Below are positions 60,109-63,990 of a DNA stretch of 64,000 nucleotides, piece by piece. Within the stretch, counting starts at the first letter, position 1, and each line of letters begins with the position of its first letter. The stretch covers positions 1 through 64,000 of the forward strand of contig CALXMV010000003.1 in NCBI GenBank assembly GCA_944389565.1, given 5' to 3'. The notes under the pieces were generated by a model. It searched no databases. It saw nothing but the letters and a program-made list of their open reading frames with translations, and was not told where the DNA came from. Source of the DNA: an uncultured Kiritimatiellota bacterium. GTDB taxonomy: Bacteria > Verrucomicrobiota > Kiritimatiellia > RFP12 > DVOR01. The position numbers and the translations under genes are program-made.

Positions 60109-61434
60109 TCACCGTTCGCGCACGACGAAACGTAATTTGCCCCTGTCATGCGGAAGCTCCGCGACTGGCTCAAAAACCACCGGAACCTCGTCATTGAGCT
60201 GCCGCGACAGCCGCGCCCGAATCTCGTCCACCCGCCGACGTGCATCCTCCGACTCCTGCGCCGGGACGTAAGCCACCGTGATGGAAGCATCCCTGTGCTG
60301 CGTCACGCGGAAACCACGCACCAAATCCGGATCGTTGTCGAAAAGCGTCGTGAGGAACTCACCGTTCACCACGAGCCCGGAAGGCAAGACGAACGATTCC
60401 GACTCACGCCCCTTGATCGAATCGATGAGCGGCAACGAGCGTCCGCACGCGCACGGCTTCCCCAACCAACGCCCTCGGTCGCCGTTCTCGTACCGGATGA
60501 GCGGAAAGACGAAATCCTCCAGATTGGTCAGCAACGCCCGGCCATATTCCCCCACGGGCACAGGCCGATTGTCCCCATCCACGAACTCGATGGCCACATG
60601 CTCCACATTCACGTGCAACCCATCCTCCTCCGGGCACTGCTGCGCGACCCAACGAATCTCGCACGACCCGTACTGGTCGCAGACCGGCGCACGGAATGCC
60701 CGCTTCAGCAGGGCCCGTTGCACCGGTGAGAGCGGTGCCGACGTCACCCACACGCACCGCGGCGCCCACACTTCGAGACCACGATCCAAAACGAACTGCG
60801 CCAACTGCGTGACCGCCCCCACATACCCCTGCAACAAGGCCGGCCTCGCCTGATCGTAACGCGCCAGAAACGCCCCCATCGAGCGCTCATCCATGAAACT
60901 CGCGTCCAGCTTCAAATGACGCGTCGGCCACCACATCGCCGCGTTCTTCAGGCGAGCCAAACGCGATGCCACCGGCACACGCCACACATACGCATGATCG
61001 TCCCACGGACGGATCCCGAACCAGGACTGCAACCGCCAACTGTAAATCGCCTCCGGGACACGCCCGTCATATCCCGTCTTCGTCGGGGTCCCCGTCGAGC
61101 CTCCCGTCGTCGAGACCCGCCGGAACCTTCTCAATGCCGGGTTCGTCATCTCCTCGAAATGCTCCCGGATCTCCGCCTTCGTCACGATCGGCAATTTCTC
61201 GAACCACCCCTCCTGCCCCATATCCCCAAGCCCAAACCCCGCCTCCCCGTAAAACTTCTTGTAGAACGGCACCTGCGTCACCGCCGCCGTGACAAGCCGG
61301 CGCTTCGCGGCCTCCTGTTCGCGCAACAACGCCTCCGGCGGCCGCCGCTCATTGCCCACCAAGACGCCAAAACGCTTCCACGCCCCAGGCATCGCCAAGA
61401 CGCACTTCGCACGAAACAACATCGACCGTGACAT
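60109..61434 (-). CDS. CapK/PaaK-like adenylate-forming enzyme
   Basis: A 441-aa protein of the phenylacetate-CoA ligase/CapK branch of ANL enzymes. TTGGSTGTPTK (about 109-119) is the P-loop-like adenylation motif, DQYGSCEIRWVAQQC (about 244-258) the A5-like site, FPLIRYENGDRG (about 315-326) the A8/hinge and HDRGKLRFVVRER the C-terminal Lys region. A CACGR after the hinge (about 333-337) is shared with the paralogue at 62635. In polysaccharide loci such proteins activate acyl or aryl groups for sugar decoration; substrate unknown. ATG lies 6 bp after the PP-loop gene. Confidence 0.8.
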   Translation of the reverse strand: MSRSMLFRAKCVLAMPGAWKRFGVLVGNERRPPEALLREQEAAKRRLVTAAVTQVPFYKKFYGEAGFGLGDMGQEGWFEKLPIVTKAEIREHFEEMTNPALRRFRRVSTTGGSTGTPTKTGYDGRVPEAIYSWRLQSWFGIRPWDDHAYVWRVPVASRLARLKNAAMWWPTRHLKLDASFMDERSMGAFLARYDQARPALLQGYVGAVTQLAQFVLDRGLEVWAPRCVWVTSAPLSPVQRALLKRAFRAPVCDQYGSCEIRWVAQQCPEEDGLHVNVEHVAIEFVDGDNRPVPVGEYGRALLTNLEDFVFPLIRYENGDRGRWLGKPCACGRSLPLIDSIKGRESESFVLPSGLVVNGEFLTTLFDNDPDLVRGFRVTQHRDASITVAYVPAQESEDARRRVDEIRARLSRQLNDEVPVVFEPVAELPHDRGKLRFVVRER

Positions 61435-61440
61435 AATCCG

Positions 61441-62625
61441 TTACCCTCTCGGGGAGAAAACCCCTGACGTGCTCCCACCCCGCAACACTTTTTTGGTCAT
61501 CTTGCGCAGGACAATCACAATCGCCCTGCACCAATCACCGAGCGTGAACCCCATCCGTCCCCGATATGGCCATGCTTGCAATGCGTATTCATTCCGCTGA
61601 ATCAGACCACGCAAAAGCTCCGCGAGATACTCCCCACGATGCGATTTCACGTAATCGACATCGAACGTCGCGGCGAACCGTCCCAATGCCTCATCCCCAC
61701 CGACCGCCAACAGCTCAAGAACCGTCCGCATACACTTCGGGCAATCCCACGTGCCGTTGCGCGTCCCTTCCGCATGACCATTCCAACACACGTCCAAATG
61801 CCGCTGCGCCAAAGGGAAATCCACCAGCGCCCGGACCTTGTCAAGCCGTGTCCCCATCCCATCGGCGATAACCTTCAGGCCATGCACGGAGCAGACCTGC
61901 GTCAACAACAAATCATAGTGCGCCACGTCAATCGTCTGAACCGGCGACAAAAACATCTCATTCACCGAATAGCCTGTCGCGAGATAATACCGAGCGAAGA
62001 GACCACGCAGACAATACACGGCGAACAGATTGGCGAGCGTCGAATGATTTTCGAAGACAAGCCCAGGGGCGGAGGCCCCGTCATAATTCGTATCCCCAAC
62101 AATCAACGCGACCGAGGCCTCTTGCGCCACCTCCCGCGCATGCTCCACCAACTCATCGAACAAGGCACGCTTGTCCTTCGCGGCCGTCCCACCATGGCAA
62201 TTGTTGATGACCACGTGCGTCACCTCGTGCCGATGCATGTACATCGTGTACATCGAGTCAACCCCACACGTGATGCTACAACCTACCCCCCCCCCGCACC
62301 CATCCGATGCGATTCGTTCCGCGGAGATACGGAGCGGCTCCATCGAGGGGTTTGCCGCGCACATCGTGGGCGAGAAAACCTCCGTCAGATTCTGGATCAG
62401 ATCCTCCGAACACGGCGCCTCGCTCACGACCTCATGTCGGCCGATGATGACCTCCTTCAGCAACCCGATTACCCACGGGTCACCGTAATCCGCGCAAAGA
62501 TATTGCCCAAACCGCTCCTCGACCTCATACCACAGCGGATAGACCTTCCCGTCCACGTCAATGTCCGCGGACACCCGTGCCTTCCCCTCACGATGGGAAA
62601 TCGTCGGCTTACGAATCGTGATCAT
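61441..62625 (-). CDS. PP-loop-like protein between two CapK homologues
   Basis: A 394-aa protein that I cannot assign to a named enzyme. GCSITCGVDSMYTMYM (about 114-129) looks like a PP-loop ATP-pyrophosphatase motif (S-G-G-x-D-S variant), suggesting adenylation of a carboxylate or amide. LIVGDTNYDG (about 179), HGLKVIADGMGTRLDKV (about 259) and a possible metal site WDCPKCMRTVLEL (about 303-315) follow. Gene order between the two ANL enzymes implies they act together, probably to modify a surface polysaccharide. G+C is lower than in the housekeeping genes. TAA stop. Confidence 0.65.
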   Translation of the reverse strand: MITIRKPTISHREGKARVSADIDVDGKVYPLWYEVEERFGQYLCADYGDPWVIGLLKEVIIGRHEVVSEAPCSEDLIQNLTEVFSPTMCAANPSMEPLRISAERIASDGCGGGVGCSITCGVDSMYTMYMHRHEVTHVVINNCHGGTAAKDKRALFDELVEHAREVAQEASVALIVGDTNYDGASAPGLVFENHSTLANLFAVYCLRGLFARYYLATGYSVNEMFLSPVQTIDVAHYDLLLTQVCSVHGLKVIADGMGTRLDKVRALVDFPLAQRHLDVCWNGHAEGTRNGTWDCPKCMRTVLELLAVGGDEALGRFAATFDVDYVKSHRGEYLAELLRGLIQRNEYALQAWPYRGRMGFTLGDWCRAIVIVLRKMTKKVLRGGSTSGVFSPRG

Positions 62626-62634
62626 AATACGCTC

Positions 62635-63990
62635 TCAATCCGCGATAACATCACTAATGATATACTTGATCTTACCTCGATTATGCGGGATAAAATCCTT
62701 GTACTCCACAGTAAGTGGCAACGATCCAAGCTGACGTTGCAAATTGGCTGCAACCGTTGCAATGGCTTTCTCCGCATCCGGGTAAGCGTGGTTCATAACA
62801 ACAGATAATGTCACCGATTTGTCCTGATGTTGATGAATCTGGAAATTGTGGATGGCATTCAAGCAATCATCGAATGCCGTCGCCCAACATTCGCCAGCGA
62901 TTTTACCATGTTCCAAATAAATGAAATCAAACGACCGTCCATGCACGGCATCCATCAACGGAAAGGGACGCCCACACGCACAACGTCCAGGCAACAACCG
63001 TCCTCGATCTCCGAGTCTATAGCGAATGATCGGGAAAACACGATCCATGCAATCCGTCACCAAAATATCCCCCACCTCGCCAACCGGCAAGGGAGTTCCA
63101 AACTCATCAACGAACTCCAAATGCCGATAGTCACTGTGGATATGCAGGGCCGGGCTACTTATTTCTGCCAAATGTCGGCATTGATTTGCCATCGGATGCG
63201 CCTCCGTCGCCACATAGTTGTCAAAAACCAAACACCCAAAAGCACGCACGATATCCGCACGAACCGTGCTCGACAACGGGGCCGCGGTCGTAAAAACAGC
63301 ATCCGGCGCTGGCAATTTAATCCCCTGTTGCAAACAATAAACCGCCAATTGATGGATACCACCAACATAGGAGGAAATCCGACGCGGTTTATAATGGCGC
63401 CATTGTCTTATGAAACGCTCGATCTTTTCCTCTGACATATCCCCTGCATCCAACATAATGTTAGTGGCAGGGAAATTCGCCAAGAAATGTCGAAACCGCG
63501 TCTTCCATGTGGCATGATGCGTGCGCATGATGGTCGCGGAATTCCCACCTACCGGGACTCCCGTCCATGTCCCCGCCCGCCAATTCATGACGACAGAACT
63601 GAACCCATCATCCTTCAACACCTTTGATGGCTCACCCGTGGATCCTCCCGTAGTATATAGTTTGTACGTGGACTGCGGATGAGCGACTTTAATCGTTTCA
63701 AAATTATACCGTAACGCCTCGCGGGTCAACATCGGGACCTTCGCCCAATCTTCTTCCGTCTTGACATCGCCAGGCTCCAACCCCGCGGCTTTGTAGAGAG
63801 CATGATAATACGGGGACTCCTCATATGCGAACTTCAACAAATCCAACCGTAGCCGAAAGTTGAATTCTGCGAGAGCCTCGGGGGAGAGCCGTTCGTTAGC
63901 CATCGACTGCCGAAACTGTTTCCACCATTGCGGCTTGGCCAAGCGACACCGTATCTCACGCCATTTCTCAGCAAATTTGTCTGTTTTCAT
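62635..63990 (-). CDS. CapK/PaaK-like adenylate-forming enzyme, second copy
   Basis: A 451-aa homologue of the protein at 60109: YTTGGSTGEPSKV (about 112-124), DNYVATEAHPMANQC (about 255-269), FPIIRYRLGDRG (about 327-338), CACGRPFPL and HNRGKIKYIISD at the C-terminus. The two copies are well diverged, so they are unlikely to be a recent duplication and probably have different substrates. G+C is about 48-50 %, much lower than the window average, indicating horizontal acquisition. AGGATG is 4-9 nt before ATG; the locus must continue beyond 64000. Confidence 0.8.
   Translation of the reverse strand: MKTDKFAEKWREIRCRLAKPQWWKQFRQSMANERLSPEALAEFNFRLRLDLLKFAYEESPYYHALYKAAGLEPGDVKTEEDWAKVPMLTREALRYNFETIKVAHPQSTYKLYTTGGSTGEPSKVLKDDGFSSVVMNWRAGTWTGVPVGGNSATIMRTHHATWKTRFRHFLANFPATNIMLDAGDMSEEKIERFIRQWRHYKPRRISSYVGGIHQLAVYCLQQGIKLPAPDAVFTTAAPLSSTVRADIVRAFGCLVFDNYVATEAHPMANQCRHLAEISSPALHIHSDYRHLEFVDEFGTPLPVGEVGDILVTDCMDRVFPIIRYRLGDRGRLLPGRCACGRPFPLMDAVHGRSFDFIYLEHGKIAGECWATAFDDCLNAIHNFQIHQHQDKSVTLSVVMNHAYPDAEKAIATVAANLQRQLGSLPLTVEYKDFIPHNRGKIKYIISDVIAD

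What the first reader, a model, noticed from the sequence alone, without database searches (positions are those of the whole stretch)
60109..63990. CapK - PP-loop - CapK cassette
Two diverged adenylate-forming enzymes flank a protein with an unusual TCGVDS PP-loop-like motif and a CxxC, all tightly spaced and increasingly low in GC. Two carboxylate-activating enzymes plus a third adenylating fold suggest an uncharacterised aminoacyl/acyl modification of a polysaccharide.
Basis: partly seen in the sequence, partly recalled or inferred. Interest (0 to 1): 0.5.

Follow-up and report, generated by a model that had tools for sequence, protein, structure and literature searches.

The report
QatC-shaped enzyme in a polysaccharide operon
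Three neighbouring genes at the end of the window belong to a bacterial surface-sugar gene cluster; the middle one is a member of a widespread but unnamed enzyme family shaped like QatC, an antiviral relative of the tRNA-base enzyme QueC, and probably helps to attach an unknown chemical group during sugar-polymer assembly.

Summary
The three genes are real, at the stated coordinates, with 6- and 9-bp gaps. They end a leftward polysaccharide operon that continues past 64000 with CapA-like and glycosyltransferase genes. The PP-loop guess is supported. An AlphaFold model (pLDDT 91) ranks QatC first (Z 12.6, 295 residues), then QueC and Cap9. No Pfam or NCBIfam model recognises the protein.

The 'CapK - PP-loop - CapK cassette' is not a conserved unit. 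In the phylum sample the middle family occurs in 39 of 387 genomes. CapK lies beside or near it in 4 of 130 examined loci, two of which are the same place. The full trio was seen once.

What recurs is the PP-loop family itself. It sits beside Wzx-type flippases, polysaccharide pyruvyl transferases and FrhB-like proteins (against control), and is fused to ATP-grasp or CapA domains. The QueC base-recognition motif is essentially absent, so deazaguanine is an unlikely substrate.

Best reading: ATP-dependent carboxylate activation and amide-type transfer during polysaccharide assembly. The chemistry is inferred. The window copy has lost several near-invariant residues.

The parts
62635..63990 (-). 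CapK-like a, PaaK/CapK-type adenylate-forming enzyme, 451 aa
   Evidence: ORF; NF045666 E 3.2e-29, PF00501 E 2.5e-4, both below curated cut-offs
61441..62625 (-). Middle protein: PP-loop (QueC/QatC-like) family member, 394 aa
   Evidence: ORF; AlphaFold pLDDT 91.3; VIA Z 12.6 to QatC, 11.8 to QueC, 11.6 to Cap9; first row of the 57-row family alignment A4
62296..62625 (-). N-terminal domain of the middle protein (residues 1-110), carrying near-invariant L43, R47 and invariant D49
   Evidence: conservation in A4; the QatC alignment spans model residues 1-367
62254..62271 (-). PP-loop motif T119-C-G-V-D-S124 (family norm S-C/G-G-V/I-D-S)
   Evidence: column counts over 57 sequences: S119 in 55, T in 2; G121 and D123 in 57; S124 in 55
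61732..61788 (-). Zinc-site-like cysteine region, residues 280-298: C280, C295, C298 kept; C291 replaced by G
   Evidence: C291 present in 56 of 57, G only in the window copy
60109..61434 (-). CapK-like b, 441 aa, 74% identical to the CapK beside the PP-loop gene of another species of the genus
   Evidence: ORF; blastp and genus search

Best explanation
The middle protein belongs to a widespread family, unnamed in the libraries searched, of PP-loop enzymes with the QatC layout: an N-terminal domain, a QueC-like ATP-pyrophosphatase core with a C-terminal cysteine (zinc-type) site, and C-terminal helices. The family works in surface-polysaccharide synthesis. Most likely it binds ATP with its SxGVDS loop, activates a carboxylate as an acyl-adenylate, and passes it to ammonia or an amine, so making an amide-type decoration on a sugar or lipid-linked repeat unit before Wzx-type export. 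In this species two CapK-like ligases, encoded in the same operon, probably activate one or two further acids for the same polymer. Shown here: genes, operon, predicted fold, conserved motifs, genomic context. Inferred: adenylation, amide formation, the substrates, and any cooperation with CapK.
For: Fold: pLDDT 91.3, pTM 0.90. VIA Z: QatC 12.6 over 295 residues, QueC 11.8 over 178, Cap9 11.6 over 167, then TilS about 8; Foldseek ranks two QueC entries first, at E 0.03. Sequence: the family's distal branch aligns full length with QatC (hhalign 91%, E 9e-7), against 1% or less for five column-shuffled QatC alignments, reversed alignments, PPT and CapK; the window clade and the distal branch are one family (100%, E 1.5e-47). 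Context: of 93 immediate neighbours at named loci, 11 Polysacc_synt, 10 PS_pyruv_trans, 8 FrhB_FdhB_C, 5 Acyl_transf_3; of 94 genes at least five genes away none of these is in the printed top 25, whose last rows have 2 members. An annotated polysaccharide pyruvyl transferase lies beside or near the family gene in 5 of 9 plasmid regions. Fusions to ATPgrasp_ST (2) and PGA_cap (1) among 9 long members scanned. In the window operon the next gene upstream is PGA_cap, preceded by GT families 4, 25, 8 and 2.
Against: No activity of any member is known to me or was found. Foldseek gave no match at E <= 0.001. No sequence profile links the window clade directly and strongly to a named family. The window copy has lost near-invariant residues (T116C, G117S, S119T, G144H, C291G), so it may be altered or inactive. 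For a wider alignment the sugar amidotransferase WbuX scores above QatC (55% against 37%). CapK linkage is rare.
Confidence: 0.5

Rival explanations
1. It is a sugar amidotransferase working like WbpG/WbuX (PseA type): it converts an acetamido or carboxyl group of a nucleotide sugar into an amidino or amide group, using ammonia from a partner.
For: WbuX/WbpG is a PP-loop enzyme of O-antigen clusters, described as 'N-sugar amidotransferases' and placed in the QueC superfamily by PMC13329287 (parts 1-3 of 5 read). hhalign of the wide family alignment gives WbuX 55.5%, E 1.2e-4.
Against: NCBIfam gives no TIGR03573 match to the window protein or 7 other members, and TIGR03573 rings 0 times in the window genome. 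A CxxCxxC-type site is in 55 of 57 and 17 of 17 family members but 0 of 7 WbuX sequences. No glutamine amidotransferase family is in the printed neighbour tally.
Confidence: 0.2
2. It modifies a protein, as Cap9 does and QatC is thought to do: it activates a carboxylate and attaches it to the N-terminus or another amine of a partner protein encoded in the polysaccharide cluster.
For: QatC is the best structural match over nearly the whole length. PMC13279940 (parts 1-3 of 6 read) reports N- and C-terminal QatC extensions, part of them binding QatB, and Cap9 conjugating CDG to a protein N-terminus.
Against: Neighbours vary (flippase, pyruvyl transferase, FrhB, GTs, acyltransferase), with no single recurrent partner seen; I did not search neighbours for an MG(T/G)S start.
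Confidence: 0.13
3. It conjugates 7-carboxy-7-deazaguanine (the QueC substrate) to the polysaccharide or its precursor.
For: QueC/Cap9-like core. The genome has its own QueC and a QueD-family (PTPS) gene, so the substrate could be present.
Against: The nucleobase-recognition YPDC motif of QueC is kept in the genome's own QueC but a Y.DC string occurs in only 1 of 57 and 0 of 17 family members. No deazaguanine genes are among the printed recurrent neighbours.
Confidence: 0.03
4. The window copy is a decaying or non-catalytic member, kept as a scaffold or lost function.
For: Five departures from near-invariant positions; 43% identity to the syntenic copy of another species while the adjacent CapK-b keeps 74%.
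Against: The frame is intact, G121, D123, S124, N180, R260 and K263 are kept, and the model is confident. No selection test was run.
Confidence: 0.12

Closest known systems
QatC (qatABCD anti-phage defence; NF041925)
   Same: Whole-length structural match (Z 12.6, rmsd 5.5, 295 aligned); N-terminal extension, PP-loop core with C-terminal CxxCxxC-type site, C-terminal helices; distal branch aligned full length by hhalign.
   Different: NF041925 does not find the window genome; family genes sit in polysaccharide clusters; PADLOC gives 0 QatC matches in 57 members.
QueC (PF06508) and Cap9
   Same: Core domain fold (Z 11.8 and 11.6); for QueC and the family, cysteine site C-terminal to the PP-loop.
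   Different: PF06508 is not among the matches printed for 57 members (25 of 32 families shown); YPDC essentially absent; extra N- and C-terminal regions.
WbpG/WbuX N-acetyl sugar amidotransferase (TIGR03573)
   Same: PP-loop enzyme of polysaccharide clusters; weak profile similarity.
   Different: No TIGR03573 match; different cysteine arrangement (PMC13329287).
CapK/PaaK-like adenylate-forming enzymes (NF045666, PaaK, FlxY)
   Same: The two flanking proteins match these models.
   Different: All scores are far below curated cut-offs, so the acid and the acceptor are unknown.
DUF6395 (PF19932)
   Same: Weak matches in 19 of 57 family members, best E 0.0024, over the C-terminal part where positions were printed.
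   Different: Below Pfam's cut-off of 25 bits where the score was printed; the window copy has no match.

Membership tests
PP-loop (N-type ATP pyrophosphatase) superfamily | SxGxDS phosphate-binding loop | tested here: met
   56 of 57 members match an [ST]xGx[DE][ST] pattern; window TCGVDS with S119T, a change shared by 1 other of 57
PP-loop (N-type ATP pyrophosphatase) superfamily | Rossmann-like PP-loop fold | tested here: met
   predicted model, pLDDT 91.3; QatC, QueC, Cap9, TilS, LarE, MnmA and ThiI fill the top VIA rows
PP-loop (N-type ATP pyrophosphatase) superfamily | ATP binding and adenylation | not testable with these tools
   needs a bench assay
QueC (PF06508) | PF06508 profile match | tested here: not met
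   not listed for the window protein nor among the 25 of 32 families printed for 57 members; the genome's true QueC is a separate gene on C67
QueC (PF06508) | YPDC nucleobase-recognition motif | tested here: not met
   a Y.DC string in 1 of 57 and 0 of 17; present in the own-genome QueC
QueC (PF06508) | C(x)8CxxCxxC zinc motif | tested here: inconclusive
   family: C280, C291, C295, C298 in 56-57 of 57; window copy lacks C291
QatC | N- and C-terminal extensions around a QueC core | tested here: met
   model layout and alignment over residues 1-367
QatC | NF041925 profile | tested here: not met
   no match in the window genome at E <= 0.001
QatC | qatA/qatB/qatD neighbours | tested here: inconclusive
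   none among the operon genes annotated; KAP and TatD families are not in the 25 of 93 families printed for neighbours
WbpG/WbuX (TIGR03573) | TIGR03573 profile | tested here: not met
   no match for the window protein nor 7 other members; none in the genome
CapK/PaaK-like ligases | curated PaaK/CapK-type model over cut-off | tested here: not met
   best NF045666 102 and 100.6 bits against 300
CapK/PaaK-like ligases | adenylation motifs (glycine-rich TTGGSTG, GDRG, C-terminal Lys) | tested here: met
   both proteins (alignment; motif identities recalled)
Recurring CapK - PP-loop - CapK cassette | co-occurrence of the three genes in independent genomes | tested here: not met
   trio seen once; CapK beside or near the family gene in 4 of 130 loci, two of them the same place; 2 of 17 genus genomes

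The most novel reading that the evidence does not exclude
A large family spanning bacteria and archaea, with the QatC layout, decorates surface glycans by PP-loop acyl-adenylate chemistry not yet described for polysaccharides. The immune enzyme QatC and this glycan family share a common QatC-shaped ancestor, so an antiviral conjugation enzyme and a capsule-decorating enzyme would be two uses of one machine.
Probability: 0.3. Interest if true: 0.68.

Novelty: new variant of a known kind. Interest (0 to 1): 0.46.

Why it matters
QatC's reaction is unsolved (PMC13279940). A widespread relative sitting among sugar genes gives an independent handle: if its product can be read from a purified polysaccharide, it tells what QatC-shaped enzymes do. 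It would also name a protein left 'hypothetical' in the annotated plasmid records examined and suggest a new type of capsule decoration in gut bacteria and archaea.

Tried and rejected
Single-sequence searches of PDB sequences found nothing; profiles A1 and A4 gave only weak alignments, the best of them MnmA at the PP-loop, E 1.2-1.4. A scan of genome contigs with the window protein found no relative; a second with alignment A2 gave 207 relatives, of which 80 were kept as 78 loci. Phage records: no match with the window protein or a distal member. PADLOC: no defence family in 57 members apart from a weak Csm6 hit in one, E 0.046. The viral structure library gave QueC-like phage proteins, none at E <= 0.001.

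Rejected: that CapK and PP-loop genes are a conserved unit; that close CapK relatives elsewhere carry the PP-loop gene (five loci, none does); that the protein is the genome's QueC. Considered: that the N-terminal part of the Paracoccus protein is a pyruvyl transferase piece; my PPT profile did not find it, so no claim. A test for the QueC VPxRN motif was uninformative, since the pattern also missed the genome's own QueC. Literature: searches on PP-loop with capsule or pyruvyl transferase terms, DUF6395, and CapK terms showed no paper on this family; the library holds open-licence PMC papers only.

Limits: gene calls in unnamed loci are by my own codon-bias script, which missed the family gene in L015, L016, L020 and L021 (found there by six-frame search). 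The neighbour tally used only immediate same-strand neighbours of 120-800 aa (93 proteins); the control used 94 of 187 distant genes. The search set is biased by two peptide patterns. The hhalign E-values are for single comparisons. The 130 loci include repeats of the same places under different ids.
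Full report
OBSERVATION. The three minus-strand genes are as described: CapK-like b 60109-61434, middle protein 61441-62625, CapK-like a 62635-63990, separated by 6 and 9 bp. The contig continues to 99454. Eleven bases upstream of CapK-a lies a CapA-like gene (PGA_cap, E 6.8e-45), preceded by glycosyltransferases of families 4, 25, 8 and 2, all leftward. Beyond them lie two more GT2 genes, a GT17, a polysaccharide pyruvyl transferase (PF04230, E 2.3e-22) and a Wzx-like protein, the last without a Pfam match at E 0.001 and named by its likeness to the flippases beside other family members. The falling GC is the edge of this low-GC island.

WHAT THE MIDDLE PROTEIN IS. No Pfam, NCBIfam or PADLOC model recognises it and no PDB sequence matches. 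Relatives do exist: 8 of 59 nearby genomes, the own one included; 39 of 387 genomes of the phylum; plasmids of Paracoccus; and, with a distal member as query, plasmids of Azospirillum, Gemmobacter, Gloeothece, Nostoc, Priestia and haloarchaea, labelled hypothetical protein. A scan of species genomes gave 207 relatives, of which 78 named loci were kept, from Bacteroidota, Bacillota, Lentisphaerae, Verrucomicrobia, Alphaproteobacteria, Gastranaerophilales and Methanomethylophilaceae archaea. The family hallmark is an SxGVDS loop and, about 160 residues later, C(x)n-N-C-G-x-C-x-K-C-x-R-T.

FOLD. With 56 relatives aligned, AlphaFold gives pLDDT 91.3 and pTM 0.90. VIA-align ranks QatC first (Z 12.6, rmsd 5.5, 295 residues, model 1-367), a second QatC entry (12.0), QueC (11.8), Cap9 (11.6), a second QueC (11.4), then a gap to TilS at 8.1. 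Foldseek puts QueC first but at E 0.03 with no match at 0.001. By profile the window clade and the distal branch are one family (E 1.5e-47). The distal branch aligns full length with QatC (91%, E 9e-7), with WbuX at 47%, QueC at 14% and controls at or below 1%. For the wide set WbuX (55%) exceeds QatC (37%) and QueC (29%), and for the window clade alone all three are weak (WbuX 24%, QueC 15%, QatC 9%). So membership of the QueC/QatC-like PP-loop superfamily is well supported; the exact nearest relative is less sure.

RESIDUES. In 57 sequences D49, G121, D123, N180, L277, C280, C295 and K297 are invariant. The window copy differs at T116, G117, S119, G144 and C291. The QueC motif YPDC, present in this genome's own QueC, is essentially absent from the family. 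PMC13279940 reports that QatC also lacks the Tyr/Asp base-reading pair, with essential threonines instead, and that its reaction is unresolved (parts 1-3 of 6 read). PMC13329287 maps the QueC superfamily including QatC, Cap9, LarE and WbpG (parts 1-3 of 5 read); I saw no description of the present family in the parts read.

CONTEXT. Of 93 immediate neighbours, 11 match Polysacc_synt, 10 PS_pyruv_trans, 8 FrhB_FdhB_C and 5 Acyl_transf_3. Among 94 genes at least five genes away none of these four is in the printed top 25, whose last rows have 2 members, while general glycosyltransferases are as common. In 5 of 9 annotated plasmid regions a polysaccharide pyruvyl transferase lies beside or near the gene: Gemmobacter, two Gloeothece, Azospirillum and Priestia. 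It does not in Haloterrigena, Nostoc and two Paracoccus records. Nine long members were scanned: two carry ATPgrasp_ST, one PGA_cap, two Peptidase_S11 plus methyltransferase, four Sel1 repeats. The PGA_cap fusion (L131) echoes the window operon, where CapA is two genes away from the PP-loop gene.

THE CASSETTE. CapK-b is 74% identical to the CapK directly downstream of the PP-loop gene in one other species of the genus, whose PP-loop protein is 43% identical. Only these two of 17 genus genomes have CapK. CapK-a has no such counterpart there. In 130 loci with the PP-loop family, CapK was found in four: the window, the other genus species twice under different ids, and a Muribaculaceae locus 3 kb away. 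In the phylum CapK is common (219 of 387) and not enriched with the PP-loop family (17 of 39 against 22 expected; my tally). Five close CapK relatives elsewhere were examined and none has the PP-loop gene nearby. So the trio is a local combination of two widespread polysaccharide-cluster enzymes.

MECHANISM. QueC activates a carboxylate with ATP and transfers it to ammonia; Cap9 transfers it to a protein N-terminus (PMC13279940). By analogy this family most likely activates a carboxylate and makes an amide or similar bond, here on a sugar, a lipid-linked unit or a partner protein of the cluster. The substrate is unknown. CapK-like enzymes would supply other activated acids. None of these steps is shown.

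VERDICT. A sound observation with a partly right reading. The cassette is ordinary as a unit; the middle protein is a member of an uncharacterised branch with an immunity-enzyme relative. Beyond the window the same cluster carries three promoter-like segments bounded by inverted repeats, reported under Noticed in passing.

Noticed in passing
L002 11069-11167, 13357-13455, 15739-15837 (contig C3 69068-69166, 71356-71454, 73738-73836; beyond the window): Three 99-bp segments, each bounded by 24-bp inverted repeats GCGTYTARACGNNCGTYTARACGC (exact in two, one mismatch in one) with segment-specific central dinucleotides, lie between three divergent gene pairs (GT2|GT2, GT2|GT17, pyruvyl transferase|Wzx-like). 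Each contains TTTGCTATACTT, pointing rightward in the first and third and leftward in the second; inner identity to the second segment is 25 and 32 of 51 when it is flipped, against 15 and 12 unflipped. They look like invertible promoters; the finding's operon lies downstream of the first. A control pattern read backwards had 0 matches in the genome; the consensus promoter scan did not list these sites. A phase-variable capsule is known in Akkermansia (PMC13343947, passages read), with a different repeat motif.
   Followed up: partly
G000 contig C41 6319-6342 and 12008-12031 (L220): A fourth pair of the same repeat type (1 mismatch to the pattern), inverted, 5.7 kb apart, beside repeated coding segments that share VVGYTTMTMEAGKWYQV; possibly a coding inversion. 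The genome also has two serine-recombinase (PF00239) genes, on C5 and C6.
   Followed up: partly
L062, L063, L064 (and L055, L052, L163): Two or three PP-loop family genes in tandem or close together; in L062-L064 they lie next to a pyruvyl-transferase-like gene on the other strand and the copies are of different branches.
   Followed up: no
L124, L126, L130, L133, L136-L138: Methanomethylophilaceae, Methanomassiliicoccaceae and Thermoplasmata archaea carry several, often long, copies of the family, four of the scanned ones with Sel1 repeats.
   Followed up: partly
L010 (G012:C4:101808-103004) and L009 (G014:C3:73566-74753): One genus member has lost the cysteines of the zinc-type site; another has in-frame stops and looks broken.
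   Followed up: no
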